Origin: Gemmatales bacterium
GTDB lineage: Bacteria; Planctomycetota; Planctomycetia; Gemmatales; HRBIN36
Length of the DNA: 64,000 nucleotides
Assembly: GCA_025060195.1 (NCBI GenBank)
Contig: JANXCQ010000009.1
Coordinates: 1 to 64,000, forward strand
Direction of reading: 5' to 3'
Position numbers and translations under genes: made by a program. Shown piece after piece: positions 1,614 through 29,042 of this stretch; position 1 is the stretch's first letter, and each line of letters begins with the position of its first letter. The notes under the pieces are model-generated. The model saw only the letters and a list, made by a program, of their open reading frames with translations. It made no database searches and was not told where the DNA came from.

Positions 1614-2876
1614 ATGATATTGCGTACTTGCACGCTCACCTGCATCGTTGCGCTATTAGCATTCAGCTGGGTCTGGGCTAATTGGCCGAGCTTTCGCGGG
1701 CCGACGGGCAACGGCCATGCTTCCCCGCAGGCCCAGCCGCCTTTACGTTGGTCGGCCCAGGAAAACGTCGCCTGGAAGGTTGAATTGCCAGGGCCGGGCA
1801 ATTCCACGCCCGCGGTCTGGAACGAACGCATCTTCCTGACGCAGGCCCTCGACAAACAGCGGCATCAGCGCGCGTTGTTGTGCCTCGACCGTCGTACCGG
1901 TAAAGAACTGTGGCGTCGGGTCGTCCGTTACGAGGAAGACGAGCCGACTCATCGCGATAATCCTGCGTGTTCTGCGTCTCCCGCCACGGATGGTCAGCGA
2001 GTAGTCGTTTCTTACGGTTCGGCAGGGATCTATTGCTACGATTTGCAAGGCAATCAGCTTTGGCACTATGCTACGGGTAAAATCCATCATATCTGGGGCA
2101 ACGCCGCTTCGCCGATCATCCATGACGGTATGGTGTTTCTCAACTGTGGCCCAGGCGAGCGGACGTTTCTGGTCGCGCTCGATTTGGCTACTGGCAGAGA
2201 AGTGTGGAAAGTGGACATTCCGGGGGGCAAATTTGGCGAAAAGCCTTCGGATTGGCTCGGCGCTTGGAGCACCCCGGCGATCGTGCGAGTGGGCCACCGT
2301 GACCTGCTCGTAGCTAGTTGGCCCGAATTTCTGGCGGCTTACGAGCCCAAAACGGGTAAGGAAGTTTGGCGGTGTACCGGGCTAGGCCGGCTCGTGTACA
2401 CTTCGCCGGTGGTGTCGCCGGAGGTAGTGGTTATCAGTTGCGGATACGGGGGGCCCGCTTTGGCAGTACGCCCCGAGGGTCAGGGGGACGTCACGAAGAG
2501 CCATCGGCTTTGGCGGACTGAGGAACGCAATCCCCAACGCATCGGCAGCGGTATTTTGCTCGGTGATTACTTCTTCCAACCAAACGCGGGGCCAGCAGGT
2601 TCAGTGCATTGTCTGGAGTGGCGCACGGGGAAGGTGCTCTGGAATGAACGTCTAGGTGATGCATTCTGGGGCAGTATGGTTTATGCTGCAGACCGACTCT
2701 ATGTAACCGACAGACGTGCGGTAACGTACGTGCTCAAACCTGCGGCCAAATTCGAGCTCTTGGCCAAGAACGAACTGGATGGCGCCACGACACACGCCAC
2801 GCCCGTTATTGTGGACGATATGGTGCTCATTCGCACTTGGACGCACCTCTGGTGTCTGCGGGAAAAGTCCCAGTAA
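1614..2876 (+). CDS. Secreted PQQ-like beta-propeller protein
   Basis: The protein of 420 residues begins with a signal peptide (residues 1-22). The mature start, WPSFRGPTGNG, is characteristic of the planctomycete family of PQQ-repeat (BamB/quinoprotein-like) proteins. Propeller blades are visible as repeated motifs of the type 'ALDLATGREVWK', 'YEPKTGKEVWR' and 'CLEWRTGKVLWN'. It should fold as a seven- or eight-bladed propeller outside the cytoplasm. Members are abundant in planctomycetes and are mostly uncharacterised; no catalytic residues for a PQQ dehydrogenase can be assigned, so a scaffold or binding role is as likely as an enzyme. Confidence 0.88.
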   Translation: MILRTCTLTCIVALLAFSWVWANWPSFRGPTGNGHASPQAQPPLRWSAQENVAWKVELPGPGNSTPAVWNERIFLTQALDKQRHQRALLCLDRRTGKELWRRVVRYEEDEPTHRDNPACSASPATDGQRVVVSYGSAGIYCYDLQGNQLWHYATGKIHHIWGNAASPIIHDGMVFLNCGPGERTFLVALDLATGREVWKVDIPGGKFGEKPSDWLGAWSTPAIVRVGHRDLLVASWPEFLAAYEPKTGKEVWRCTGLGRLVYTSPVVSPEVVVISCGYGGPALAVRPEGQGDVTKSHRLWRTEERNPQRIGSGILLGDYFFQPNAGPAGSVHCLEWRTGKVLWNERLGDAFWGSMVYAADRLYVTDRRAVTYVLKPAAKFELLAKNELDGATTHATPVIVDDMVLIRTWTHLWCLREKSQ

Positions 2877-3369
2877 TGGGTCAAATAGGTTCCTTCGAGC
2901 GAGCCATTGCTGGCACCCCGGTGCGCCAGTGTGTCGGCTTGTGGTGTCTGTATGTCGGATAACTGTACCGCACATCCACTGCTTTCTCACTGGATTCGCG
3001 GCCACGATACTCGGATAAGAACACATCTCAGCGCGGCGCGCGTTATGACAGAGGGGAACGTGGCGCGTGAACCAGGTTCACAGTGCCTATGCTGCTCGTG
3101 ACTAAGTGCCCCCTTCTGCGTCCGAGCCCACGAGACGAAGCTGGCTCGTGGTTGCGATTGTTAGATTGTCATTGCTCGGTCTGACGGTGGAATCGGTTTT
3201 CACCTGGGGTTTGTACGCTTAGCGTACGGGGCAAGCGGAGTTAGCCCACCTCATCGCCGAAACTGACGCGTTGTATCCGCATGGGCGCCACGACGACTTC
3301 CTGGCACAGGCCATGCAGAAGCCGCCTGAGGATCAGGTTGGCCCTCAGTCAAGCATCTAGGGAACAAAT
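2877..3369. other. Intergenic region before pseudogene
   Basis: About 490 bases with only short, unconvincing ORFs in all frames. No RNA gene was recognised. It may include the lost 5' part of the pseudogene that follows. Confidence 0.4.
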
Positions 3370-4638
3370 ATGGAGATGAGGTAAACTCTCTTTTCGAGCA
3401 GATTGATTTCCATCGGCGCGATTTCTTGTATCAGCGCTTGCCAGGAGACATGCTCCAACGTTTACAACGGTTTTGACCCGGAGTCGCGACCTGCTGGCCA
3501 CGGTTCATGCCTTGGCTCAGCACACCGTGACTCAAGTCCCTGCAAGTGATTGGGACAAGGAAGATCCAAAGCTCCATTCTAGAAGTTTCCCCTTGTCAGA
3601 ATACCGTGAAGACGTTGGTGTTTTGCCACGAATGCTTCTTAGCCCGATCCGACATTCCAGCAGCGAAAAGAAACCTTACTAGCTATCGCTCGGTCGCGCT
3701 TTAGCTTCGATGCATGCCCGACGAGGCGATCGCGCTGAATATGGCTTGTATGAGTTGGCGGTGGAAATTGTGCGTCAATTGGCCTTGCGTGAGGTTGCCC
3801 CTGCGATGCTCGAACAACTGGAAAAAGTGCTAGTTGAGTCGGATGGAACATAATCCGTCCCTGTATCGCCTCCGTGCTGAGCGTTACGACCAGCACGAAA
3901 GATTCCTCCATTTGGCGGACAGCACGACCGATTGGCACTAGTTTCTTGTCTCGCCACCTTCCTCATCTAAACACCACTAACGTTGCAGGACGAGGGATGG
4001 TGGCCTACTATGAGATATTTTTAGCTCGGGAACTGGCTTATTTTCTGCGTCAGCATATGGCTTATCGTAAACAACACCTTGAGCACGTGTTTTCGTTGCG
4101 TCGCTTTTCCGAAGTAAAAAAATTTGCCTTGCTGCCGTTTTCCGGCAAGTTCGTCAAGGTTCCGATTTTTTGCCGTACTATGGAAGAAGTTTCACCAGAC
4201 GGGTTATTGTGGGCGCCTTTACGGCGTTCCTGGACCGGGAGTGGAACGCGAAAAAGTGGGCGTTTCGATCGATCGCGGTTGGTTCGCTCAGCTTTACTCG
4301 AATTATTGGAACGCATCCTTGTGCTATCAGACACATCGAAGTGCAATTCGTGTGGCCCTTAGCCGCGGGAAAGTATCGCTTGCGTTATGCGCTGTTTGCC
4401 CGCGACTTGGGACGACATCGTTCCTGAATTCCTGCCTGAAAAGTTGCTCGACCCCTTTGATGGTCAGCCACTGTCTATCAGGGCGGTTCCTGAAGGGCTG
4501 GTCATCTACTCAGTCGGCGCTGACAGAACGGACGACGGTGGAAAGTTGGAAGGTCGAGATTGCGGCGTCGGCTTTCGTCTGGTGCACTCTATGAGTGTCG
4601 AGCTGCCCCGCCGTTTCTTGGAAAACCGTACCCTTTAG
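3370..4638 (+). pseudogene. Frameshifted relic of the 57.5-kb membrane protein family
   Basis: Short fragments in different frames line up in order with the C-terminal half of the minus-strand protein at 57540..58982. Around 3715-3852 I read 'LREVAPAMLEQLEKVLVESD', matching the region 'LSERTLARVQSVLERFDFD'. Next 'SLYRLRAERYDQHERFLHL' matches 'SLQLIRSERARFHQLLTLL'. Near 4365 'AAGKYRLRYALFARD' matches 'AAERYRLRHGVWPRD', and after another frame change 'WDDIVPEFLPEKLLDPFDG' matches 'WSDLVPHFLREAPRDPYDW', followed by 'GLVIYSVGADRTDDGG' against 'GITIYSIGKDLKDDGG'. At least three frame changes are needed, so this is a decayed paralogue. The 5' boundary is uncertain; the strongest match begins near 3715. 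Confidence 0.75.
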
Positions 4639-4662
4639 CAGGCCCAGCGCATTGACCTGGGT

Positions 4663-5217
4663 TTAGCCTTCTGTTAGTGGTCGAGAGAGGTGGGAAAGGT
4701 GCTCGACGATGAAGTTGGCGACGGTGGCAGGTGTGAGGAAATCTGTGTCCACGCTGAAGTGGGCGCAAGATTGATAAAACGGCTCGCGCTGGGCCAACAG
4801 GAGCGACAACTCCTCGGCCAAGGGTAAGCCCGTGAGCGTGGGGCGTAAGCTGGGCGAGCGTGGGTCGTTTTGCAGCCTTGCTACGAGCACGGGTACCCTG
4901 GCTCGTAACCAGATGCATATACCATTGGAGCGGAGCAGTTGGCGATTTTCTTCAGTTAGCACGACGCCACCTCCCGTCGCTACCACAACTTTATCCCACG
5001 TGGCGATTTCGCGAAGCAGGGAGGACTCTCGCTGCCGAAAGCCGGCCTCGCCAAGGGTGCCAAACATTTCCCGCACCGATTGGCCGTAGCGCTGTTCCAG
5101 TTCGGCGTCCATGTCGCACCAATTCCAGGCGAGGTGCTGGGCTACCAGCGGGGCGACGGTGCTTTTCCCTGTACCTCGCAGACCCAGCAGATAGATGCGA
5201 CGGATCGGCTCGCCCAT
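4663..5217 (-). CDS. aroK: Shikimate kinase
   Basis: This enzyme phosphorylates shikimate at the 3-hydroxyl using ATP, the fifth step of the chorismate pathway to aromatic amino acids. The Walker A loop 'GLRGTGKST' lies near the N-terminus, followed by the 'DMDAELE' shikimate-binding Asp, the 'GGGVVL' glycine triplet and the 'RPTL' lid/adenine-binding region. Total length of about 184 residues is normal. I prefer the ATG at 5217 because it sits the usual short distance before the first strand; the ORF track begins seven codons upstream at a GTG. It is the last gene of a minus-strand run after a cysteine desulfurase, with a 57-base gap; the functional link is not obvious. Confidence 0.93.
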   Translation of the reverse strand: MGEPIRRIYLLGLRGTGKSTVAPLVAQHLAWNWCDMDAELEQRYGQSVREMFGTLGEAGFRQRESSLLREIATWDKVVVATGGGVVLTEENRQLLRSNGICIWLRARVPVLVARLQNDPRSPSLRPTLTGLPLAEELSLLLAQREPFYQSCAHFSVDTDFLTPATVANFIVEHLSHLSRPLTEG

Positions 5218-5274
5218 GTCTTGACATCGCTTTGTCACAAGCGTGTGACCAAGGCGACAACTTGCACGGTGTCC

Positions 5275-6534
5275 TCACGATTTGTGTGCGGGAACCGTTG
5301 CCAGCACAGTTGGTACAGTTTGGTGAAACCTCCGGGCGGCTTGAATGAGTGCCTCCGCGGCCAAGTCCACTTCTTCCTCAGTGGTAAATCGTCCCACGCT
5401 GAGCCGGACTGCCCCGCGGGCGGAGGCTTCGGGAACCCCCATGGCACGGAGTACAGGCGAAATGTGCACTTCCCCTTCGTGGCAGGCGGAACCCGTGGAG
5501 GCGGCGATTTGCGGCGTGGCCTGGAGCAACTCCGCGCCGACACAGCCGAGAAAGCCGACATTCAGCGTGTTTGGCAAACGTAATTCTGGATGGCCGTGGA
5601 GGGCAACGCTTGTGCCGAGTGCGGTCATGAGCCGGTGCCAGAAACGATCGCGCAGTCGTTGGAGCCGCTGGCTTAACTCGGGCAGGTCTTGCTGGGCCAG
5701 CGCACAGGCTGCGCCTAGGCCGACGATAGATGGCACATTTTCGGTGCCCGCGCGACGTCCTGCTTCCTGGCCCGCGCCGTGGAGCAACGGCTCAAGGGCA
5801 ATGCCCTCGCGGACATAAAGCGCACCGATGCCCTTGGGCGCATATAGCTTGTGTCCCGCGAGCGTGAGCAAGTCCACTTCGAGTTCCCGGACGGTAAACG
5901 CGAGCTTTCCTACAGACTGTGCGGCGTCGGTATGCACTAGCGCGCCGTGTTCATGAGCCAACCGCGCAATCTCGCGAATCGGCTGAAGGGTGCCAACTTC
6001 GTTGTTGGCGTGCATGATGGTTACCAAAGCGGTCGGCTGACGCAGTGCCCGGCGGAGCGCCTCCAAGTCCACCACTCCGAAACGGTCCACCGGTAACACG
6101 GATACCCGTACCCCAAGATGTTGGAGGAACGCACACGGACGGAGTGTGGCGGGATGCTCGATGGCGCTGGTGATGACGTGGATTTTCCGCGGCTTGAAAC
6201 GGCGCCACCAGCGCCACCATGCCGAGAAGTAGCGGTTCGCCGCGAAGACGCATTCCGTCGGTGTGGCGCCAAAGAGCAGCGGGAACACGATGCCTTTAAT
6301 GGCCAAGTTGTTGGCCTCGGTCCCGCCGCCCGTGAAGACAATTTCCTGAGCTTGGGCCCCAAGGAGCGCTGCAACTTGGTGGCGCGCTTGTTCGACCGCG
6401 GCGTGGGCAGCTTGACCGTAGACGTGGGCGCTGGACGGATTGCCGAACTCTTCGCGCAAATACGGCAGCATGGCCTCGAGCACACTCGGGGCCACAGGAG
6501 TTGTGGCGTTATAGTCGAGATAAATCGGTTTCAT
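5275..6534 (-). CDS. Cysteine desulfurase (NifS/IscS class) with extra W/R-rich insertion
   Basis: A PLP enzyme that removes sulfur from cysteine as a protein persulfide for Fe-S clusters, tRNA thiolation or cofactors. Visible family motifs are 'YLDYNATTP' at the start, 'GGTEANNLAIKG', 'SAIEHPA', 'MHANNEVGTLQPI', 'HTDAAQSVGK', the PLP lysine in 'LAGHKLYAPKG', 'RRAGTENVP' and the catalytic cysteine in 'STGSACHEG'. Between 'NLAIKG' and 'HVITSAIEHPA' it carries about 35 extra residues including 'YFSAWWRWWRRFKPRK', not present in standard IscS/NifS. The ATG overlaps the stop of the upstream adaptor gene (ATGA), so translation is probably coupled. Which sulfur acceptor it serves cannot be told; no scaffold gene is adjacent. 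Confidence 0.93.
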   Translation of the reverse strand: MKPIYLDYNATTPVAPSVLEAMLPYLREEFGNPSSAHVYGQAAHAAVEQARHQVAALLGAQAQEIVFTGGGTEANNLAIKGIVFPLLFGATPTECVFAANRYFSAWWRWWRRFKPRKIHVITSAIEHPATLRPCAFLQHLGVRVSVLPVDRFGVVDLEALRRALRQPTALVTIMHANNEVGTLQPIREIARLAHEHGALVHTDAAQSVGKLAFTVRELEVDLLTLAGHKLYAPKGIGALYVREGIALEPLLHGAGQEAGRRAGTENVPSIVGLGAACALAQQDLPELSQRLQRLRDRFWHRLMTALGTSVALHGHPELRLPNTLNVGFLGCVGAELLQATPQIAASTGSACHEGEVHISPVLRAMGVPEASARGAVRLSVGRFTTEEEVDLAAEALIQAARRFHQTVPTVLATVPAHKS

Positions 6535-7793
6535 GGCTGGCTGAAGACGAGTTTACGTCCCATTCGACCTTGACGGGCGTCTGCTAAGACGCATTCCCCT
6601 TCGGACAAACCCTCCAGGATTTCCACCCACTCTCCGCGGATCTCGCCTATGCGAACACGGTGTTCGACAAGGCGCTCGGCTTCGATTTTCCACACGCGCT
6701 CGACTCCCGCAAACTCCCATAGCGCGGTACGCGGCAACACCAGGGCCGTGGCCTGCGGATCAAGCACCAATTCGGCTTCGGCAAAAGTATTGGCGGGAAG
6801 TTGGCCTTGCGGGTTGGGAATATCGGCTTCGATGATGCGCATCAAGGTTGCGGGGTCGAGCGCGGGTTCGATGCGCTGGACACGTGTGTGGAATGGTTCG
6901 CCCATGCCCTCGACCAAGATGCGAATTTCCATTCCCGTGTGAAGCTGGAGGGTGTAGCGATCGGGCACTTTGCCTCGGAAGCGTAACGTGTCCAAGCGTA
7001 CTAGACGTACCACTGGGTCACCGACACGCAAATAGGAACCGGGCGCGGGGGGACGTGTTTGCACAATGCCGGCAAACGGTGCGCGGATCGTGGCATCGCG
7101 GATTTGTTTGCGTGCCTGTTCCAGTTCCACCTTTCGCAACTGAAGCAAGGCCAGCTGCTCACGTGTTTGGTTCAGGGCCGACAAATAACGTGCCTCGGCC
7201 ACTTTGAGCGAGACCTGCAGGCGATCCAACTCCTCGGGCGAGATGGCAGTGCGGTTCAGCCGATGCAACACGGTAGCCCGTTCCAAAGCTAGACGCGCCT
7301 CCTCGACTAGCGCTTTTTCTTGCACGACAGGCGGGGCGTTTTCCGGCCGGAGCGAGCTTTCTGATTGATCGGGTTGCAACCCAAGTCGTGCGCGGATAGC
7401 CTGCACCTGAGCCTCAGCCAGACGCTCCTGCAAACGGTAATCTTCGGCATCGAGTTCGACCAATACCTCATCTTGCTGTACACGGCTGCCAATGTCCACA
7501 TACACCCGCTCGACGCGGCCCGCCACTTGCGTCCCGACGAGGGCTTCCTCAGCTTCCACTAGGTTGCCCTGGATGTTGAGTATTCGCGGCCAGGGCCGTC
7601 TTTCGACCTTGGCCAAAGGCGGATCGCGTAAAACGTCCCATGCCGACTCGCTCGGGCTGTGTTCACCACTGCGCGCCCAACTATCCCACCAGCCGCGCAC
7701 CCCTCCCAACCAGATGGCGGAAAGGCCTAAGCCGATGACTATTCCTACGATGCAAAACCAAGTTCGCTGACGCATGGCAAGCATTCGCTGCAA
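6531..7793 (-). CDS. RND/HlyD-family periplasmic adaptor (membrane fusion protein)
   Basis: The protein has 420 residues. An N-terminal membrane anchor at about residues 12-32 is followed by a first biotinyl-lipoyl half-motif 'VAGRVERVYVDIGSRVQQDE'. Then comes a long helical hairpin rich in Leu, Glu and Gln, and the second half 'IRAPFAGIVQTRPPAPGSYL', then beta-barrel and membrane-proximal parts. This is the layout of adaptors linking an inner-membrane pump to an outer channel. No pump or outer-membrane channel gene is next to it here; the downstream neighbour is a cysteine desulfurase, overlapping by four bases. Substrate unknown. Possible starts are M1, M4 or M7; none has a strong ribosome site. 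Confidence 0.88.
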   Translation of the reverse strand: MQRMLAMRQRTWFCIVGIVIGLGLSAIWLGGVRGWWDSWARSGEHSPSESAWDVLRDPPLAKVERRPWPRILNIQGNLVEAEEALVGTQVAGRVERVYVDIGSRVQQDEVLVELDAEDYRLQERLAEAQVQAIRARLGLQPDQSESSLRPENAPPVVQEKALVEEARLALERATVLHRLNRTAISPEELDRLQVSLKVAEARYLSALNQTREQLALLQLRKVELEQARKQIRDATIRAPFAGIVQTRPPAPGSYLRVGDPVVRLVRLDTLRFRGKVPDRYTLQLHTGMEIRILVEGMGEPFHTRVQRIEPALDPATLMRIIEADIPNPQGQLPANTFAEAELVLDPQATALVLPRTALWEFAGVERVWKIEAERLVEHRVRIGEIRGEWVEILEGLSEGECVLADARQGRMGRKLVFSQP

Positions 7794-8006
7794 GGGCGGG
7801 TTGTTGTTTGGCAGGTATGCTGAATCTGAGACCGAGCCGTCACTGACTTTATCATATCAACCGCGTCAGGCTTGCGGTGAGCGTGTGCACACCACGCTGA
7901 CTAGCCGACCCATTCTGACTCCGATAATACTTGACTCAGCGGCCAGTCGAGAGTGCTTGGTGCCAAGTTTCGGCCCTTGGTGCTGGGGGCAAAAGGAGAA
8001 TCATAT

Positions 8007-9344
8007 ATGGTGGAGGATGCGCTACTCCTGTTGAATTTACTCCGTAAACGCCCCGACCAAGTAACTCCCCTGGAATGGATAGAACTGTACCGTTTGCTCG
8101 GTAATCTGGCACCCCTTGTGCTTCACGACGAAGCCGTGCGCCGAATCGAGAAGGAAGTCAGGATCCGCTTCCCCATGGTCCAGTTGCCTCAGGATCGAGG
8201 TTCGTGCTGGATTGTCATGGCCACGGTTCATCCCGAAGACTATCCGCTACTACGGCCAGCTTTTGTCATCCCGTTGCAATGGCTCAAAACAGAACAAGGA
8301 GATCCTCGCCTTCCTGCAAGGTTGCACGAGCTGTCGCAAAGGGTGCGCACCGAGTTAGCCATTGCTTTCGGTGAGCCCGAGTATCGTGAATGGAACTTGC
8401 ACCTACACCCTTATTTCGCCCCGCCTGATGCCACACTGAGTTTTCGTTCGCTCGACGACCGTCTAAGTTTCGAGTCGGGCTGGGTAGCGTTAGCAGGGGG
8501 GTTGTATCTGGCGCAGCACAATGGCCAACCTGATGAACATGTCTGGGTCTCGGCACGGTGGTGTCCACAGCGTGGCATTCAACGAGTCGGACACTTAGAA
8601 GAAAAACTGGCCTTGGCCGCACAGTTCCAAGTTCGATCGTTTTTCATTCCTGATGAACAGGAAAACGAGGTGCCACAATGTTACCTGCCTATGATCTGCA
8701 AACTTCCTCAGGGCAGCAATCGACTCCGCGACGTCTTGGCGACCTACCTAAGTGCGCTCGACGTTCGTCCCGCCCAACCCGCCTGCGATGAAGCGTCATT
8801 TCGCCACTGCGCCGCCTGGTACATGCGCCAACTCCGCCCCCTGGAACATTGCCACTTCTATTGCCATTACTTACTTCCTTATCTCGCTGAGAAGTTACGA
8901 CAACAATTTCGCCAAGAGCATCCCCTGTACCAACCAGAGGTGTTGGTAACAGTGGTCAGTCCCAGTTGGAATTTGGTGCCCCTGATGGCCCGCGTATTTG
9001 GCGTGCGCCAGTGTGCACTGCTTTACACCAGCGACGATGCCCGCATCGCTGCCCATGTGGCGGAAGTGCGCAATTATCTGCAGCAATGTACTCAGGTTGA
9101 GCAAATGATGGAAATTCCTTTTCGGATGAACCAGATGGCCGAAGACTTCCTGCGGCTGCCTGTTTGGCAGGTTTATCCGGCGGACAAAGTGCTAGTAGAT
9201 CTGACGCCTGGCAAAAAGCTTATGTCGCTGCACTTGTACAGCGCAGCGCCGAGGGGAAGTTGGATGGTTTACCTCGACAGCCATCAGCAAGAAGGCCGTC
9301 CCGTTTTGGGCACCGAACGCTTAGTTTGCTGGCAACGCAGTTAG
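8007..9344 (+). CDS. Lon-protease-like domain fused to CARF-like (Card1/DUF1887-type) domain
   Basis: The protein has 445 residues from the ATG at 8007, which has an AAAAGGAG site eight bases upstream (the ORF track starts 18 codons earlier at a GTG). Residues about 125-225 resemble the Lon proteolytic domain: 'WNLHLHPYFAP' fits the strand before the Lon active site, Ser157 lies in 'FESGW', and Lys200 in 'GHLEEKLALAA' fits Lon 'GGLKEKLLAA'. Ser-Lys spacing is 43 residues, the same as S679-K722 in E. coli Lon, and 'SFFIPDEQENE' matches 'TVLIPEEN'. The GPSAG signature itself is not kept. Residues about 310-430 look like the Card1-type CARF fold, with 'LVTVVSPSWNLVPLMARVFG', 'CALLYTSDD' and 'VLVDLTPGKKLMSLHL'. 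CARF domains bind cyclic oligoadenylate in type III CRISPR signalling. I infer a ligand-controlled protease; no CRISPR genes are nearby. Confidence 0.72.
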   Translation: MVEDALLLLNLLRKRPDQVTPLEWIELYRLLGNLAPLVLHDEAVRRIEKEVRIRFPMVQLPQDRGSCWIVMATVHPEDYPLLRPAFVIPLQWLKTEQGDPRLPARLHELSQRVRTELAIAFGEPEYREWNLHLHPYFAPPDATLSFRSLDDRLSFESGWVALAGGLYLAQHNGQPDEHVWVSARWCPQRGIQRVGHLEEKLALAAQFQVRSFFIPDEQENEVPQCYLPMICKLPQGSNRLRDVLATYLSALDVRPAQPACDEASFRHCAAWYMRQLRPLEHCHFYCHYLLPYLAEKLRQQFRQEHPLYQPEVLVTVVSPSWNLVPLMARVFGVRQCALLYTSDDARIAAHVAEVRNYLQQCTQVEQMMEIPFRMNQMAEDFLRLPVWQVYPADKVLVDLTPGKKLMSLHLYSAAPRGSWMVYLDSHQQEGRPVLGTERLVCWQRS

Positions 9345-9473
9345 TCAGGCTGATCCCCTTGGGCGAATCGGCCACTAAAGTGCCATTGCATAGAACTGTC
9401 AAACGCTTATAATGCGGCCACATTTGCGCTCACTCTCTGCTCATGGCACTGGGCTGTCAGTTGCAAAAGATCA

Positions 9474-10898
9474 ATGCAAACTAGGCAGCGAAATCTCAAG
9501 CGGGCCGCTATTCTCGGATGGACGCTAAGTATCGCGGTGTTGTCGCTGACCGCGACGGAGTGGCAAGTTCGCCTGCAATGGGTGCCGGGCCAAGAGTTGG
9601 TTTATCGGGGTGAGGTACATGAGCTAGCCAACGGTCGAGGCGTGCACTTTCGGAGAGAATATGAGTTGGAAGTCCGGTCGCTAGCGCTGGCGCAACGTGG
9701 CAGCGACCTGGAAGTGGCGTTTCTAACGACACTGCGGCCAAAAATCGCCGCCGCGGCTGCACCCGCCCATGCTTCAGTGCGATTGGAACTGGCTTGGGTA
9801 ACGGCCCAAGGGGAAGTGGTGGCACCTAATCGGGCGCCGCCCACGGTCGCGCGCGACGGCCCGACCAGTTGGGAATGCGGTTTCGTCGTGCCTTTGCCCA
9901 AGGACTCCTGGAAAACAGGCCAAACTTGGATCCACCAGGAGCCTGGTCAGCCTCCCGAAGAGTGGCGCGTCGCTGGCACTGAGAACCTGGCGGGAACAAC
10001 CTGCCTCAAGTTGCTGCGCACTCAGAAAAGCCCCGATTGGGAAAAGCCTCGGGCCGATCAGCGAGCGTGGTATCGCAAAGAGGTCATCTGGCTCGACCCA
10101 CGCTTAGGAGTCGCTCAGCGTGTCGAACGCGAGATTTCCCGGCGGGAACCTGCCCACCTTCAGGCAACAGGCAGTATCATCACCCGCTACGAACTAGTCA
10201 GTTCGCTCCAATACGAGCCCAGGCTCCTGGAAGATTGCCGACGAGAAATTCGGATCACCGCGCAATTGCAAGCGCAGCTCTCTGATTTGCTCGTGCCAGG
10301 GCGCAAAGCTCAACCCGAGGAGTTTCTGCAGTTGGCTCGTCGCGCAGAGGAAGCAAGCGTCGGACCGGCCACGCCGTATCGCTCGGCGCTGCAACGATTA
10401 GTTCAGTCGGCGCAGGCGGCAGCACGCGGAGAAATAGCTCCGGGGGCGGGGCACGAAGCAGTTCCTGCCCTGGAAGTAGGCCAAGCCGCCCCAGACTTCC
10501 TGGTCCCTGACTGGCGTAACCAGCAGAACGTATCGTTGCGCCAGTTCCGCGGCCGGCCGGTGTTGCTGTTATTTTTGCAAACTCGCTCTCCTTTGAACGG
10601 CGAAATCTTACTCCAAGTTCGCCGGCTTATGCTTCAACATCCCGAATGGGACCTCGTGCCGGCCATTGCCTTCATGGACGAGGATCGTCAAGCTGCCGAA
10701 GACCTGCTCTTACGCCGCGCCTGGGAATATCCAGTACTGCAAGGTCAAGCCTTGCGTGCGAGTTATCGGGTCGAGGCAACGCCCCGACTCGTGTTGATCG
10801 ATGGCCAAGGAGTCGTTCAAGGACAATACACTGGATGGGGGCCAGAAATCCCGCGAATCCTTCTGCGCGATCTCAAACGCATCTGCCCACGCGAGTGA
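9474..10898 (+). CDS. Secreted protein with C-terminal redoxin fold lacking the CXXC
   Basis: A protein of 474 residues. Residues 1-28 form a signal peptide or anchor. Residues about 30-320 make a beta-rich domain without a family I recognise. Residues about 335-474 resemble a TlpA/AhpC-type thioredoxin fold: 'LEVGQAAPDFLVPDW', 'LRQFRGRPVLLLFLQTRSP', 'ATPRLVLIDGQGVVQGQYTG', with the cis-Pro loop 'ATPR' kept. The position where redoxins carry CXXC or the peroxidatic Cys reads 'QTRSPLNGE', with no cysteine. The fold is therefore probably non-catalytic in thiol chemistry, acting in binding or structure. It starts 129 bases after the Lon/CARF gene on the same strand. Confidence 0.75.
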   Translation: MQTRQRNLKRAAILGWTLSIAVLSLTATEWQVRLQWVPGQELVYRGEVHELANGRGVHFRREYELEVRSLALAQRGSDLEVAFLTTLRPKIAAAAAPAHASVRLELAWVTAQGEVVAPNRAPPTVARDGPTSWECGFVVPLPKDSWKTGQTWIHQEPGQPPEEWRVAGTENLAGTTCLKLLRTQKSPDWEKPRADQRAWYRKEVIWLDPRLGVAQRVEREISRREPAHLQATGSIITRYELVSSLQYEPRLLEDCRREIRITAQLQAQLSDLLVPGRKAQPEEFLQLARRAEEASVGPATPYRSALQRLVQSAQAAARGEIAPGAGHEAVPALEVGQAAPDFLVPDWRNQQNVSLRQFRGRPVLLLFLQTRSPLNGEILLQVRRLMLQHPEWDLVPAIAFMDEDRQAAEDLLLRRAWEYPVLQGQALRASYRVEATPRLVLIDGQGVVQGQYTGWGPEIPRILLRDLKRICPRE

Positions 10899-11124
10899 AC
10901 CATAAGACGCACCACGCGCGGTATTGATACCGCTGGTTGGTAGGCCAACCGTTCTTCTTCCGCAGTTCGTTCATCCGAGAAATCCGATACTGTCTGCAAT
11001 TACTGCATATTGAGCGCCGCCCAGGCCACAAGGCTGCCCTTGCAAACTTCCACACCGATCCGATAGTATCGAATGGCCATCCGTGTCCTGCGGCTGAAAG
11101 CTTGCAAAGCTCAGTGACTTAGCT

Positions 11125-11616
11125 ATGCTCGCAACGCCCTATCAAATTCAGGAAAGCACACGGCGCTGTGCCCGAACCGGTCGGGAACTGCGGCCCGGCG
11201 AGATATGCTACAGTGTGCTCTATGAGCGGGATGGTCAGTGGGTACGCGAAGATTATTCCCCCGAAGCCTGGTCCGGTCCGCCCCCCGACGCGTTTTGCTT
11301 CTGGCGCGGCCGGGTTCCTCCGCAGGAACGACCCAAGCGGGTTGTTTATAACGAGGAGGCCCTCTGGGACTGCTTCCTGCAACTAGAGTCACGCACCGAC
11401 CCGCAGGGCCTGGCTCTGCGCTATGTCTTAGCGCTTTTGCTCCTGCGCCGCCGACGACTGCGCCTGATTAGCGTAGATACGATCGACGGCCTGGAAATCT
11501 TGCGTCTACAATGTCCCCGCACTCGACAAGAGTATCAGGTACCCAACCCTGGCCTGGCGGAGAACGAACTCAAACCGATCGAGCAACAGATATACCAACT
11601 CGTGGGTCTGGCTTAG
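11125..11616 (+). CDS. Conserved hypothetical protein with N-terminal Cys pairs
   Basis: The protein has 163 residues and no family that I can name. Its first 30 residues hold 'RRCARTGRELRPGEICYSV', with two cysteines in a zinc-ribbon-like context. A hydrophobic and basic helix 'ALRYVLALLLLRRRRLRL' lies at about residues 97-114, and another Cys is in 'LQCPRTRQEYQV'. A lipoprotein gene begins one base after its stop codon, so the two are almost certainly one transcript and may act together at the envelope. I recall similar small proteins in planctomycetes but cannot confirm this here. Confidence 0.7.
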   Translation: MLATPYQIQESTRRCARTGRELRPGEICYSVLYERDGQWVREDYSPEAWSGPPPDAFCFWRGRVPPQERPKRVVYNEEALWDCFLQLESRTDPQGLALRYVLALLLLRRRRLRLISVDTIDGLEILRLQCPRTRQEYQVPNPGLAENELKPIEQQIYQLVGLA

Positions 11617-11617
11617 C

Positions 11618-12565
11618 ATGTCTGCTATGGAGCGAAACACCATCATGGCACCGGGAAAAATCATCCCGTTAGTAGGCCGTTGTCTGAGCCTGCTGAGTTA
11701 TTGCTGCCTCGTAGGCTGGGCCGGTCTGTGCGGTTGCAGTTCCTGGACGGGGCACCGGGAACCCGCCTTGCCATGGGGTAGTCTCCGCCCCACCGCTGAA
11801 CAACTGGTAACCTATCTCGACAGCCAAGCACGCAAAATCCAATCCCTGCGTTGCACCAATGTGGACATTCATATTCAGCAAGGAGCTCAGGCGTTTGGGG
11901 CCACGGGCATGCTCGCCTACATGAAACCGCGTAACTTTCGCCTAGTGGCCCACGCGGGACTGCAAGACCAGGCCGACATCGGCTCCAATGACCGCGAGTT
12001 CTGGTTCTGGTTCCGCCATGATAAGAACAACGCCATTTACCGCTGCGCGTACGAAGATCTTCCGCACGTTCGAAGCCTGCGCATTCCCATCCATCCCGAT
12101 TGGCTGGCCCAAGCCTTGTGTGTCCAGGAAATCGGACCTGCTCATCAATATCGCATCCTGGAACAGAACGACTCCATGGTTTTCAGCACACAAACTACTT
12201 CGCCTCAGGGTCAACCACTGGTGAAGACCTTGAGCGTGGCCACTCGCGGAACCTTGGCCGGTCGCATCACTGCCATGAGTCTGCGCACGCCCCAGGGAAC
12301 GGAGCTCTGGTCTGCAGAAATCAGCGAATATCATCGCGACGTCGGCCCCTATGTCGTGCCCCGCAAAATCAAGGTGCGCTGCCCCATGGAAAAACTGGAA
12401 ATCGCCCTGAAATTAGACGGAGCGCAGGTGAACGTGTTGCAACCGAATAACGTCGGCGATACTTTCGTGCGTCCCCCGAAGCCTGGGGTTCAGGAGATTG
12501 ACTTAGCCCGAGCCACACCCGCCATCCCCGCGGATTCTACCAAGCCCAACGCCCTTTCGCCTTAG
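11618..12565 (+). CDS. Predicted outer-membrane or periplasmic lipoprotein, LolA/DUF4292-like
   Basis: The protein of 315 residues starts with a signal sequence ending in a lipobox-like 'GLCGCSSW', giving a lipidated cysteine at about residue 40. The mature part begins 'TAEQLVTYLDSQARKIQSL', followed by 'VDIHIQQGAQAFGATGMLAY' and 'KPRNFRLVAHA'. That is the order of elements in LolA/LolB-like lipoprotein-binding folds (average outer-membrane-lipoprotein-sorting type). Later 'KIKVRCPMEKLEIALKLDGAQVN' fits their last strands. It may carry lipids or lipoproteins across the periplasm, but this assignment is by pattern only. ATG at 11618 follows the previous stop closely; in-frame ATGs at residues 4 and 10 are alternatives. 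Confidence 0.75.
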   Translation: MSAMERNTIMAPGKIIPLVGRCLSLLSYCCLVGWAGLCGCSSWTGHREPALPWGSLRPTAEQLVTYLDSQARKIQSLRCTNVDIHIQQGAQAFGATGMLAYMKPRNFRLVAHAGLQDQADIGSNDREFWFWFRHDKNNAIYRCAYEDLPHVRSLRIPIHPDWLAQALCVQEIGPAHQYRILEQNDSMVFSTQTTSPQGQPLVKTLSVATRGTLAGRITAMSLRTPQGTELWSAEISEYHRDVGPYVVPRKIKVRCPMEKLEIALKLDGAQVNVLQPNNVGDTFVRPPKPGVQEIDLARATPAIPADSTKPNALSP

Positions 12566-25292: not shown

Positions 25293-28200
25293 ATGAACGA
25301 GTCGTCGGCACGGCACGAACCTGAGCGAAGCCAGGAAGGCTTAGATTCGCTGGTCCGGGCGGACGGGGAACTTGCAACCAGCCCGCCGACGCTGACCGGC
25401 AAAGAAGATTTACCTGCTGAGCGCCGAGAAACCAATCAAAGCCAGCAATCCGAGGAAGCCGATTGGCCTGGGGATGATGCCCCTACGATCATTTCCAAAC
25501 CTGCCGCAGCCGGCAGTGGTTCGCCCCAGCGGAGCGCAAGTGCAGTAACGGTTCGCGGTCGGCGCTTGGCGCATTTCGAGTTGGAGGAGCCGATTGGCGT
25601 CGGTGGCATGGCCGCGGTGATTCGTGCCCGCGATACCCAGTTAGATCGATGGGTGGCGTTGAAAATTCTGCCCCCTGAGTCCGCCAGTGATCCCGAGCAG
25701 GTCAAGCGCTTTGAGCAGGAAGCGCGCGCTGCAGCACGCTTGGACCATGAGAATATCGCCCGCGTGTATTACTGCGGGGAAGACCAGGGACTCCATTTCA
25801 TCGCCTTCGAATACGTGGAGGGCGAGAATCTGCGGGACAGGATTGCGCGGCGCGGACGGATCCCAATCGTCGAGGCGACCCAGTATGTCTTACAAGTGGC
25901 CCGCGGTCTGGAGCATGCGGCGGACCGCGGAGTAGTGCATCGAGATATCAAGCCATCTAACATTGTGATTACCGCCCAAGGTGTAGCCAAGCTGATTGAC
26001 ATGGGCTTAGCGCGAACGCAGGGAGGCAGCGCCGGCGAATTGACTCATTCGGGGGTCACTTTAGGTACCTTCGATTATATCTCGCCCGAGCAAGCGCTGG
26101 ATCCGCGATTGGCCGACGTGCGCAGTGATATTTATTCGTTGGGTTGCACGTTTTATCACATGCTGACGGGACGTCCGCCGACACCCGAGGGAACTGCCGC
26201 ACGGAAGTTACACTTCCACCAAGCAGAGCGTCCAGTAGACCCACGTTATTACAATCCTGAGATTCCGCGGGAGCTGATCTTGATTCTGGGGCGGATGTTG
26301 GCGAAAGAACCAGAGCGGCGTTATCAGCATCCACGGGAATTGATTGCGGACTTGGAGTTGGTCTTGGCCCAATGGAAACGCCAACGGAACCGCGTGCAGC
26401 CTCGGGATACTTTGTATCGCCTGTCGCCCCAACGTTACCGAGGACGGTGGGCTCTGGTCCTGGCGATATTGGCTTTGTGCACAATTACCGTGCTCAGTTG
26501 GTTGGAAGCCCAGCGTCCCAGTGGGGAAACTGTCCCGAGTCCTGGCCTCGAGGCGAATCAAGTGAGCGTCAACGACAATAGTAAGAGTTCCCTGCCCCCA
26601 TTTGCCGCCGGGACAGACAGCCAAGTGCCTCCCGCAGCTACCCCGGCAGTGTACCATGTCAAGACTCCGTTGGAACTGCGTCGAGCGTTTCAGGAAGTAG
26701 AGGAAGCAGGAAAATCAGCCATCGTTTACCTGGAGGAAACTGATTACCATTTGAATAATTTGCCTGTGTCCGAAAGTAGCTTGCTCAGTCTGAGAGCGGG
26801 GCAGGTAGTGGTCGAACCGCGTAGCCCTGGCCCGGCGACGTTATACTTCGATCTCGCAGCCGGCGAGGTACCGGAAGCGCGGTTGAGCCTTCTGAACTTG
26901 CAGGGGGGCATCGTAACCTTACGCCAAGTACGTCTGGTCATGCGTCTGCCCCCGGCCGGTGAGACGATAACGTTGCTGCGTCTGCGAAGTGGCCTATTGT
27001 TGCTGGAGAGTTGCGAGATTGTCGTCGAATCCACCTCAGAGCACCCGGGAGCATCAGTGTTCCAGTTGGCGGGCACCGATCCCGCGCGCTGCCGCGTTTC
27101 CTTGCAGCAATGTGTGGTGCGTAGCGCGGTGCCAGTATTTCTTTGTGAGGGTAGTGCCGAAGTGATTCTGGAAGATTGTGGCCTAAGCACGCAAGCAGGG
27201 TTGATAGTGGCGCGAACCCAGCGGCAGACCGGCAGCGAAGCCGTCGGTGAAGGGGCTTCGGAGTCATCCCAAGGGGAAGACAAAACCCGCAATCTTGCGA
27301 GCCTATCGTGGCGTCATTGCACTTGGTGGCTGGAACGTGGGCCGGGCATAGTTGTTTCTTCAGGTTCGGCGCTGCGGTTGCACTGGCACCACTGCATTTT
27401 GGCTCGACTGCGGCCGGAGCGGACTTCCAGCCTGGTCGAGTTGCGGGAAGAGCCTCTGAGCACCAGTCCGGAATTGACCAAGCACCTGGATAACTGCGTC
27501 GTGCATCGGCTCGAGCCTGTCGTCGCCCGAGTGGTCGAAGGGGAAGCTGGCGAGGTCTTACTGTCCAGCTTGCGAACTTGGCGCTCCAACCTTCTGAGCC
27601 TCAGTGAGAGTGGATGCGTCAGCGTGGAAGCCCCACCGTGGGCCAGCCAAGACCCCTTGCTTGCCCTGGAACAGGCACGTCTTCTTGAAGCTTTTCGGGC
27701 CCGCGCCGATGCGGTGGAATTGCGACGTCGCGATCAACCCGAAGTGGTTTTAGGAGTGCGGCGCTTGCTGGGCCAATCGTTATATCCCTCCCTCCCGAGC
27801 CAACTCGTCTCGCTGAACCGAACGCCAGTGCGGGAATTGATTGTGGACGGCGTGGGCGGTAAGCCCCACACGTTCGACAGTTTATCAAGCGCCTTGAACT
27901 CCGCAGCCGCAGAAGGCGAGGGGCGCGTCGTTATCACCTTGCGCGTTCACGGGGCCCTGCCTATTCGTTCGCTGTTGGACATCGTAGGGAATCGCCAAAT
28001 CACGATCCGCGCTGCCGAAGGCTTCCGTCCTGAGCTGAGTTTTCACAGCGAACGCGTGCCGGAGTCCAGCAATATCACCTCGCTGTTTCGCGTGCATGAC
28101 GGTCAACTGGTACTGGAGCAGATTGGCTTCCGATTAACTCCGTTAGCTACGGGAAGCGTACGCTGGCAAGCGGTAGTGAACCTGACGGGTTCAGGGAGTT

Positions 28201-29042
28201 GCACCCTGCGACAGTGTTATGTGACCTTCGCCAATGAGGGGGACGAGCCACAACTGGCTCTCGTCGCCTTGACCGACCCTCCAGGCATGATGGCACCAGC
28301 GGGAAAACCGAACCGCACCGCCGAAACGCCTCTGGTGAACTTGGACACTTGTTTCTTACGAGGTCGCGGCGTCGGATTGTACGTAGCAGAAAGCCGACCT
28401 GTGCGCGTCCAGCTCCAACACACTTTGGCAGTGCTGGAAGCGCCGCTCATGCGCGTGGAAACCTCTCGCCCAGACAGCAGTATGCTCCCGACCGGCGAGA
28501 TGGTTTGTCATCTCGAACGGGTAAGCGTGTGCAGCACCGAGCCCCTGATTTACTTGTTGGCCACGAAAGAAAACTCCCAACCCGTACCTGTGCGCTGGCA
28601 CGCCGTGAGCTCGCTCTTTGTGGTGCAGGGAACTAATGAACCAGCCTTACTGCGTTTAGAAGGGCCAAACACCGAATCCGAGATCCGCCGCACATGGCTC
28701 AGTTGGACAGGTCAGGCAGACAAGCCCAACGTTCTCAGCGTCGAAGGATCGGCTTTAGTGTGGCGGCCCGTGGGACAACAACGCATGATGTCCGCAGTCG
28801 CGGCTGACCGTACCGAGTGGAGCAACTTCTGGGGCACGAATTCCGAGGAAGTTCGTTTCATAAGGCCATGGCGCTGGGTCGGATATCGGGTGGGCCAAAA
28901 ACCCACCTGGCAGGTTGAGCCTCAGGAGTTCCAAATTCCGCCAGGACAACTCCCGCACCAAATCAATGAGGTCGGCGCCGACCTGACGCGTCTGCCCTTG
29001 TATCACACGCCATCGCCCGAAGCCAATCCTCCCTCGAATTAA
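25293..29042 (+). CDS. Ser/Thr protein kinase with large extracytoplasmic beta-helix-like domain
   Basis: The protein has 1249 residues. Residues 1-90 are a low-complexity, acidic tail. Residues about 93-350 form a PknB-type kinase: P-loop 'GVGGMAAV' near 102, catalytic Lys124 in 'VALKIL', 'HRDIKPSNIVI', 'GTFDYISPEQALDP' and 'SDIYSLGCTFYHMLTGRPP'. The usual DFG is DMG ('KLIDMGLAR'); the metal-binding Asp is kept. A membrane helix follows at about 385-405 ('WALVLAILALCTITVLSWL'). The remaining 840 residues hold repeats such as 'LRLRSGLLLLESCEIVVES', 'CRVSLQQCVVRSAVPVF' and 'CTLRQCYVTF', typical of right-handed beta-helix sheets. I infer a transmembrane sensor kinase; its targets are unknown. 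Confidence 0.9.
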   Translation: MNESSARHEPERSQEGLDSLVRADGELATSPPTLTGKEDLPAERRETNQSQQSEEADWPGDDAPTIISKPAAAGSGSPQRSASAVTVRGRRLAHFELEEPIGVGGMAAVIRARDTQLDRWVALKILPPESASDPEQVKRFEQEARAAARLDHENIARVYYCGEDQGLHFIAFEYVEGENLRDRIARRGRIPIVEATQYVLQVARGLEHAADRGVVHRDIKPSNIVITAQGVAKLIDMGLARTQGGSAGELTHSGVTLGTFDYISPEQALDPRLADVRSDIYSLGCTFYHMLTGRPPTPEGTAARKLHFHQAERPVDPRYYNPEIPRELILILGRMLAKEPERRYQHPRELIADLELVLAQWKRQRNRVQPRDTLYRLSPQRYRGRWALVLAILALCTITVLSWLEAQRPSGETVPSPGLEANQVSVNDNSKSSLPPFAAGTDSQVPPAATPAVYHVKTPLELRRAFQEVEEAGKSAIVYLEETDYHLNNLPVSESSLLSLRAGQVVVEPRSPGPATLYFDLAAGEVPEARLSLLNLQGGIVTLRQVRLVMRLPPAGETITLLRLRSGLLLLESCEIVVESTSEHPGASVFQLAGTDPARCRVSLQQCVVRSAVPVFLCEGSAEVILEDCGLSTQAGLIVARTQRQTGSEAVGEGASESSQGEDKTRNLASLSWRHCTWWLERGPGIVVSSGSALRLHWHHCILARLRPERTSSLVELREEPLSTSPELTKHLDNCVVHRLEPVVARVVEGEAGEVLLSSLRTWRSNLLSLSESGCVSVEAPPWASQDPLLALEQARLLEAFRARADAVELRRRDQPEVVLGVRRLLGQSLYPSLPSQLVSLNRTPVRELIVDGVGGKPHTFDSLSSALNSAAAEGEGRVVITLRVHGALPIRSLLDIVGNRQITIRAAEGFRPELSFHSERVPESSNITSLFRVHDGQLVLEQIGFRLTPLATGSVRWQAVVNLTGSGSCTLRQCYVTFANEGDEPQLALVALTDPPGMMAPAGKPNRTAETPLVNLDTCFLRGRGVGLYVAESRPVRVQLQHTLAVLEAPLMRVETSRPDSSMLPTGEMVCHLERVSVCSTEPLIYLLATKENSQPVPVRWHAVSSLFVVQGTNEPALLRLEGPNTESEIRRTWLSWTGQADKPNVLSVEGSALVWRPVGQQRMMSAVAADRTEWSNFWGTNSEEVRFIRPWRWVGYRVGQKPTWQVEPQEFQIPPGQLPHQINEVGADLTRLPLYHTPSPEANPPSN

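What the first reader, a model, noticed from the sequence alone, without database searches (positions are those of the whole stretch)
8007..9344. Lon-protease-like domain fused to a Card1-type CARF domain, outside any visible CRISPR locus
The protein has a Ser157/Lys200 pair with exactly the 43-residue spacing of the Lon S679/K722 dyad, and flanking segments that align in order with Lon ('WNLHLHP', 'GHLEEKLALAA', 'SFFIPDEQ'). The C-terminus has the Card1/DUF1887-like pattern 'LVTVVSPSWNLVPL', 'ALLYTSDD', 'DLTPGKKLM'. A protease switched by a cyclic nucleotide is known as an idea from CalpL (Lon-SAVED) in type III CRISPR. This arrangement, with a degenerate GPSAG box and no adjacent cas genes, could be a stand-alone or trans-acting signal-controlled protease.
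Basis: partly seen in the sequence, partly recalled or inferred. Interest (0 to 1): 0.86.

Follow-up and report, generated by a model that had tools for sequence, protein, structure and literature searches.

The report
Detached CARF-Lon protease, sigma-linked CRISPR family
The gene encodes a protein-cutting enzyme that is probably switched on by a small cyclic RNA alarm signal of CRISPR immunity; this one sits alone, but its relatives almost always sit behind a gene for a transcription-initiating sigma factor and two unknown proteins, so the cut probably releases a sigma factor that turns on defence genes.

Summary
Window 8007-9344 encodes an intact 445-aa fusion of a Lon proteolytic domain and a CARF domain. 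Ser157 and Lys200 are invariant in all 23 family members, and a confident AlphaFold model (pLDDT 88.7) matches Lon P domains and Csm6/Cam1 CARF domains. The architecture is not new: it is PADLOC's CARF_m2/CARF_LON family (E 7e-116), reviewed as predicted type III effectors with unknown targets.

What I could not find described is the context. In 19 of 23 loci the protease is the last gene of a tight operon behind a sigma-70-like factor and an unannotated protein (c10), usually with a third (c9), sometimes next to Cas10. All 15 CARF-Lon genomes tested carry type III CRISPR genes. One relative is fused to a cA4 ring nuclease.

Best reading: a cA4-gated protease that cleaves c10, an anti-sigma-like protein, to free a sigma factor: a CARF counterpart of Calp (Lon-SAVED) and of III-E Csx29/Csx30.

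The window copy is a detached descendant of operon members under purifying selection, and most likely works in trans. Its genome holds part of a Cmr system, one complete CARF-Lon operon and two sigma-c10 modules lacking a protease. Cleavage, ligand and target are inferred, not shown.

The parts
8007..9344 (+). CARF-Lon protease gene, 445 aa (P0001)
   Evidence: ORF and ribosome-binding site; PADLOC CARF_m2--CARF_LON E 6.6e-116, full length; AlphaFold pLDDT 88.7
7992..7998 (+). Shine-Dalgarno-like AAAGGAG, 8 bases before ATG 8007; the orthologue in G001 has the same (supports start 8007, not 7953)
   Evidence: sequence
8007..8180 (+). N-terminal helical region, residues 1-58
   Evidence: AlphaFold secondary structure
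8190..8762 (+). Lon-type proteolytic domain, about residues 62-252 (no AAA+ ATPase)
   Evidence: profile vs solved Lon domains, housekeeping Lons, Foldseek
8475..8477 (+). codon of catalytic Ser157 (ESGW in place of GPSAG)
   Evidence: invariant in 23/23; aligned with the Lon nucleophile
8604..8606 (+). codon of catalytic Lys200
   Evidence: invariant in 23/23; 43 residues after Ser157, as in Lon
8784..8921 (+). helical linker, about residues 260-305, between protease and sensor
   Evidence: AlphaFold helices 262-274 and 279-304
8931..9341 (+). CARF domain, about residues 309-445
   Evidence: Csm6 profile match, PADLOC CARF/Csx1, Foldseek Csm6 and Cam1
8958..8960 (+). codon of conserved Ser318 in the first CARF loop (VVSPS)
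   Evidence: Ser in 20 of 23 sequences
9198..9218 (+). second CARF motif DLTPGKK (residues 398-404); D398 acidic in 23/23, G402 in 22/23

Best explanation
The gene encodes a Lon-type Ser-Lys protease held off by its CARF domain and switched on when the CARF domain binds a cyclic oligoadenylate, most likely cA4, made by Cas10 of a type III CRISPR complex. In its family the substrate is most likely c10, encoded just upstream. c10 is proposed to hold the sigma factor of the same operon inactive; cleavage frees the sigma factor and turns on a defence regulon. The window copy descends from such an operon, has lost its neighbours and acts in trans, either on the complete operon elsewhere in the genome or on two protease-less sigma-c10 modules. 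Shown by sequence: domains, dyad, CARF fold (predicted), operon, sigma homology, co-occurrence with type III genes, descent from operon members. Inferred: ligand, activation, c10 as anti-sigma and substrate, and the target in trans.
For: Domain identity and dyad. Operon: 19 of 23 CARF-Lon loci have a sigma-like gene and c10 immediately upstream, 17 of them also c9. HMMs built on one set of loci recovered the operon in others. In eight operons measured, gaps run from -73 to +96 bases and are mostly under 60, with several 4-base overlaps. Sigma identity: profile hits ECF SigE 5.6e-7, SigW, SigH, FliA; NCBIfam sigma70-ECF in 7 of 11 members, best 2e-11. CRISPR link: RAMPs in 9/9 CARF-Lon relatives against 8/52 others, Fisher p 1.4e-6, and in 6/6 further CARF-Lon genomes. 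Cas10 lies in the same stretch in 7 loci; the Cas10s checked, except the one cut by a contig end in the own genome, keep GGDD. cA4 link: one CARF-Lon is fused to a STIV-B116/AcrIII-1 domain (E 3.4e-20) that keeps the SAIGH and RLPEG motifs; that class cleaves cA4 (PMC12409355). c10 was found in only 6 of 392 phylum genomes, all with CARF-Lon. Orphan: its clade (100/100) sits inside a supported clade of operon members; dN 0.29 with saturated synonymous change. Protease-less sigma-c10 modules in the own genome.
Against: I found no biochemical data for any CARF-Lon. c10 has no detectable homology to a known anti-sigma factor or to anything credible in the PDB or Pfam. The sigma proteins are divergent: most fall below Pfam's cut-off and region 4 is only visible by eye. 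The c10 co-occurrence count is partly circular, since four of its six genomes supplied seed sequences. The G000 CRISPR locus is cut by contig ends, so its Cas10 cyclase motif could not be read. The orphan has no partner next door, and evidence for trans action is only presence in the same two sister genomes.
Confidence: 0.6

Rival explanations
1. The protease releases a toxin, not a sigma factor: c9 is an RNase-like toxin kept silent by c10, and cleavage of c10 frees c9. The sigma gene only controls the operon.
For: c9 is present in 17 of 23 loci, between or beside the sigma gene and c10. By eye it has a helix-His then strand '-TAF/TAY-' pattern reminiscent of barnase/RelE-like RNases.
Against: No credible Pfam, PADLOC or PDB match for c9; its AlphaFold model failed (pLDDT 40.7). 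Two operons and the C82 module lack c9 while keeping sigma and c10.
Confidence: 0.15
2. The protease is a broad suicide protease that digests many host proteins once cA4 binds, as PMC9704534 speculates for CARF-Lon effectors.
For: Published speculation; the orphan copy has no dedicated partner next to it.
Against: The dedicated, tightly packed sigma-c9-c10 operon across Planctomycetota points to a specific substrate, as for CalpL and Csx29.
Confidence: 0.13
3. The orphan copy in the window has left CRISPR signalling: its CARF senses another ligand or none, and it cleaves a housekeeping target.
For: No sigma, c9, c10 or Cas10 homologue in the 64 kb; it evolves faster than its upstream neighbours (64% against 71-80% identity).
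Against: Dyad and CARF motifs are intact; synonymous change is saturated while dN is 0.29; both genomes that carry it have type III genes.
Confidence: 0.12

Closest known systems
CARF-Lon effectors (PADLOC PDLC01981 CARF_m2--CARF_LON; predicted in the CARF classification cited by PMC9704534)
   Same: Same full-length domain architecture; E 6.6e-116.
   Different: Described only as predicted effectors with unknown target. The sigma-c9-c10 operon, the ring-nuclease fusion and the detached copy were not found in the literature held here.
Calp system: CalpL (Lon-SAVED), CalpT (anti-sigma), CalpS (ECF sigma)
   Same: Lon domain fused to a cyclic-oligoadenylate sensor, a sigma factor and a third protein, type III CRISPR (PMC11417357).
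   Different: Single CARF instead of SAVED. The c10 profile has no CalpT match and the CARF-Lon profile no CalpL match in the PDB. There is an additional protein, c9.
Type III-E CASP/Craspase: Csx29 protease, Csx30, Csx31, CASP-sigma
   Same: Four-part logic of protease, two further proteins and an ECF-like sigma; Csx30 binds and inhibits the sigma and is cleaved (PMC10028731). The sigma family weakly matches the III-E sigma model.
   Different: The protease is Lon-type with a CARF sensor, not a caspase-like enzyme bound to the effector; no Csx31 match and no Csx29 match over cut-off in the genomes searched.
Csx1-Crn2 self-limiting fusion
   Same: One relative (G156) carries the same Crn2/AcrIII-1 ring-nuclease domain at its C-terminus.
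   Different: There the effector is an RNase, here a protease.
Card1/Can2
   Same: CARF sensor; weak sub-threshold match to the Card1 CARF model.
   Different: No PD-(D/E)xK nuclease; the CARF is closer to Csm6/Csx1/Cam1.

Membership tests
CARF-Lon (PADLOC CARF_m2--CARF_LON) | full-length match to the family model | tested here: met
   E 6.6e-116, residues 8-444 of the protein, model positions 6-408 of 408; 13 of 13 family members match
Lon (S16) proteolytic domain | Ser-Lys dyad 43 residues apart | tested here: met
   S157/K200 aligned with the Lon dyad, invariant 23/23
Lon (S16) proteolytic domain | Lon P-domain fold | tested here: met
   AlphaFold plus Foldseek: 1z0e, 3wu5, TM up to 0.68 normalised to the target
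Lon (S16) proteolytic domain | GPSAG motif and AAA+ module of housekeeping Lon | tested here: not met
   ESGW replaces GPSAG; 445 aa with no ATPase match. It is a Lon-domain protease, not a Lon
CARF superfamily | CARF Rossmann-like fold and conserved loop motifs | tested here: met
   Csm6 and cA4-bound Cam1 structures; motifs S318 and D398-K404
CARF superfamily | binds a cyclic oligoadenylate as dimer | not testable with these tools
   indirect only: relative fused to a cA4 ring nuclease
Type III CRISPR ancillary effector | encoded in genomes with type III genes | tested here: met
   9/9 in the relatives set, own genome included, and 6/6 others
Type III CRISPR ancillary effector | adjacent to cas genes | tested here: not met
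   window 64 kb has no Cas10 homologue; 7 relatives have Cas10 in the same stretch
Calp system | SAVED sensor (two CARF-like units) | tested here: not met
   one CARF unit only
Calp system | CalpT-type anti-sigma and sigma gene in the operon | tested here: inconclusive
   sigma-like gene present in relatives, c10 not detectably CalpT; window copy has neither next to it
Type III-E CASP | Csx29 TPR-CHAT protease and Csx31 | tested here: not met
   no match over cut-off in the genomes searched; the Csx31 model rang nowhere, so absence is not proof
Card1/Can2 | PD-(D/E)xK nuclease domain | tested here: not met
   N-terminal half is a Lon domain

The most novel reading that the evidence does not exclude
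A detached CARF-Lon protease acts in trans as a shared switch: one cyclic-oligoadenylate pulse lets it cleave the c10-type inhibitors of several scattered sigma modules in the same genome (C37, C82, C104), turning on several regulons at once. The sigma-c9-c10 core is a general defence module that other planctomycetes have fused to helicases instead.
Probability: 0.3. Interest if true: 0.78.

Novelty: new variant of a known kind. Interest (0 to 1): 0.62.

Why it matters
CARF-Lon proteases are listed as type III CRISPR effectors with no known target. The operon gives most of them a concrete candidate substrate (c10), a partner (the sigma factor) and a candidate ligand (cA4), so the open question becomes one in vitro experiment. 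If right, a third CRISPR system uses a protease to free a sigma factor, after Calp and III-E. Immune control of transcription would then be a recurrent outcome of type III signalling, and the window gene suggests that the protease can be uncoupled from both its operon and the CRISPR locus.

Tried and rejected
Card1 membership: sub-threshold and no nuclease. CRISPR-independent protease: rejected as the main reading because of 15/15 co-occurrence. Start codon GTG 7953: rejected in favour of ATG 8007 with its own ribosome-binding site. c9 as a barnase/RelE-like toxin: suggested by eye, but no database support and the AlphaFold model failed, so it was not used in a fold search. c9 as Csx31: no match. 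NF041237 and NF041238 were guesses for Csx30/31 models and turned out to be Csx29 and an unrelated AhpD-like family; a Csx30 model was not tested. Plasmids, phages, viral contigs: no relative of the CARF-Lon. Shared promoter motif between the orphan and the sigma modules: looked at upstream regions, nothing convincing. Makarova 2020, Shah 2019, Shmakov 2018 and the Calp paper itself are not held, so the claim that the operon is undescribed covers only the papers held here.

Full report
What is there. The ORF at 8007-9344 is intact, 445 aa, with AAAGGAG 8 bases before ATG 8007. Pfam sees only a sub-threshold Card1 CARF, but PADLOC matches the whole protein to its CARF_m2--CARF_LON model at 6.6e-116. 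A profile of 13 relatives matches solved Lon proteolytic domains (1z0e, 2e-7) with Ser157 and Lys200 on the catalytic Ser and Lys, and the CARF domains of Csm6. Run over 392 Planctomycetota genomes, the Lon part of the profile also finds many housekeeping Lon proteases, which is an independent check. AlphaFold gives pLDDT 88.7 and pTM 0.84. Foldseek finds Lon P domains and the CARF domains of Csm6 and cA4-bound Cam1. The dyad is invariant in 23 of 23 family members, D398 is acidic in all, and Ser318 is Ser in 20 of 23.

Not a new architecture. CARF-Lon proteins are listed as predicted type III effectors with unknown targets (PMC9704534), and proteases of the Lon family are listed among type III effectors (PMC12669027). 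The window protein is a member of that family.

Relatives. One search found the gene in 9 of 61 genomes (own genome included), two copies in five of them. The phylum scan added six genomes, and named contigs place it in Gemmatales, Gemmataceae, Pirellulales and Planctomycetaceae. No plasmid, phage or viral contig searched carries it. The own genome has a second copy on contig C37.

The operon. Around the relatives, HMMs trained on some loci recover in others a four-gene order sigma - c9 - c10 - CARF-Lon. A final table over every stop-to-stop frame gives sigma and c10 directly upstream in 19 of 23 CARF-Lon loci, with c9 in 17 of them (two with c9 placed before sigma; one operon is split over two contigs). 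A sigma remnant without c10 occurs in one more (G044). No partner is seen in three: the window gene, its orthologue in G001, and G156, whose protease is fused to a ring nuclease. In eight operons measured, gaps run from -73 to +96 bases, mostly under 60, including several 4-base stop-start overlaps. Cas10 lies in the same stretch in seven loci; the Cas10s checked keep GGDD, apart from the one cut by a contig end in the own genome.

Identity of the partners. The sigma gene encodes a sigma-70-like protein: its profile matches ECF SigE at 5.6e-7, SigW, SigH and FliA over region 2; Sigma70_r2 or sigma70-ECF appears in 7 of 11 members, best 9e-9 and 2e-11. c9 and c10 match nothing credible in Pfam, PADLOC or the PDB. 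c10 was found in only 6 of 392 phylum genomes, all six CARF-Lon genomes (p 1.4e-12, with the caveat that four of those genomes supplied seed sequences). The sigma-c9-c10 core also occurs without CARF-Lon in two genomes, where c10's N-terminal part is fused to a DEAD or SNF2 helicase. So sigma and c10 seem to belong together first, and the effector seems exchangeable.

CRISPR link. RAMP genes occur in all 9 CARF-Lon genomes of the relatives set but in only 8 of the other 52 (Fisher p 1.4e-6; relatives are not fully independent). All six further CARF-Lon genomes also have them. The own genome has Cmr2 cut by the end of contig C59 and a RAMP near the end of C45, so its CRISPR locus appears to be split by assembly gaps. 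In G156 the CARF-Lon is fused to a STIV-B116/AcrIII-1 domain (PF08960, 3.4e-20; AFV3-109 1.8e-13) that keeps the SAIGH and RLPEG motifs; I recall the His and Glu of these as catalytic. That class cleaves cA4 and is known fused to Csx1 (PMC12409355), so cA4 is the likely activator of the family. This is inference from one fusion.

The window copy. It stands alone, with divergent HlyD and cysteine desulfurase genes upstream as in the sister species G001; the next gene downstream differs between the two. Nothing in the 64 kb matches sigma, c9, c10 or Cas10. In the tree the two orphans form a 100/100 clade inside a supported clade (95/90) of operon members, so they most likely descend from operon genes (the root is unknown). 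Between the two species dN is 0.29 while synonymous sites are saturated, so the gene is under purifying selection. The same two genomes, and no other of the 61, hold sigma-c10 modules lacking a protease or other fused effector: C82 and C104 in G000, C325 and C7 in G001. Their sigma and c10-like genes evolve fast (41-50% identity between the species, with neighbours of C82 at 72-85%), and so does the orphan protease (64% against 71-80% for its upstream neighbours); the C37 operon is far more conserved (82-97%). This makes trans service of those modules attractive but unproven.

How it most likely works. Target RNA activates the Cmr complex, Cas10 makes cyclic oligoadenylate, the CARF domain binds it and activates the Lon domain, which cleaves c10 and frees the sigma factor. 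This is the logic of Calp, where CalpL cleaves the anti-sigma CalpT to release CalpS (PMC11417357), and of type III-E, where Csx29 cleaves Csx30, an inhibitor of CASP-sigma, with Csx31 of unknown role (PMC10028731). Shown here: domains, dyad, predicted fold, operon, sigma homology, co-occurrence, descent. Inferred: ligand, activation, cleavage of c10, sigma release, and the orphan's target. The CARF-Lon is not a CalpL: one CARF instead of SAVED, and no CalpL or CalpT match in the PDB profile searches. The system is not III-E: no Csx31 match and no Csx29 match over cut-off in the genomes searched.

Limits. The genomes are draft or metagenome assemblies. Key papers, including the 2020 CARF classification, are not in the library, so I can only say that no description of the operon was found in the papers held. 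The c9 model failed and c10 was not modelled.

Noticed in passing
L076 (G156:C12), 8091-10163: CARF-Lon of 690 aa fused at its C-terminus to an AcrIII-1/Crn2-like cA4 ring-nuclease domain with the SAIGH and RLPEG motifs kept, about 3 kb from a Cas10: a possible self-limiting protease.
   Followed up: yes
L110 (G009) 7822-12517 and L111 (G010) 4191-9505: sigma - c9 - c10 modules in which c10's N-terminal part is fused to a DEAD/MZB helicase (G009) or an SNF2 helicase (G010, next to a 1027-aa protein that looks like a sacsin-type ATPase): the sigma module seems to be shared by other defence-like effectors.
   Followed up: partly
L105 (G000:C82) 2607-5132 and L106 (G000:C104) 6759-10385: Protease-less sigma-c10 modules in the window's own genome, fast-evolving, with c10 enlarged to about 500 aa.
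   Followed up: partly
L106 7894-8744: c9 of the C104 module is split into two overlapping ORFs (149 and 165 aa), a frameshift or sequencing error.
   Followed up: no
L028 (G001:C198) around 1015: In-frame TGA in the G001 copy of the C37-type CARF-Lon; the operon is divided between contigs C26 and C198, so it may be an assembly error or a pseudogene.
   Followed up: no
L023 (G000:C59) 5779-8016 and L112 (G000:C45) 8919-10343: Cmr2 is cut by the end of contig C59, and a Cmr RAMP gene sits at the end of contig C45: the type III-B locus of this genome seems to fall into an assembly gap.
   Followed up: partly
window 9474-10898: Next gene downstream is an AhpC/TSA thioredoxin-like protein with a likely signal peptide; it is not conserved downstream of the G001 orthologue.
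   Followed up: partly
window 25293-29042: 1249-aa protein with a serine/threonine protein kinase domain.
   Followed up: no
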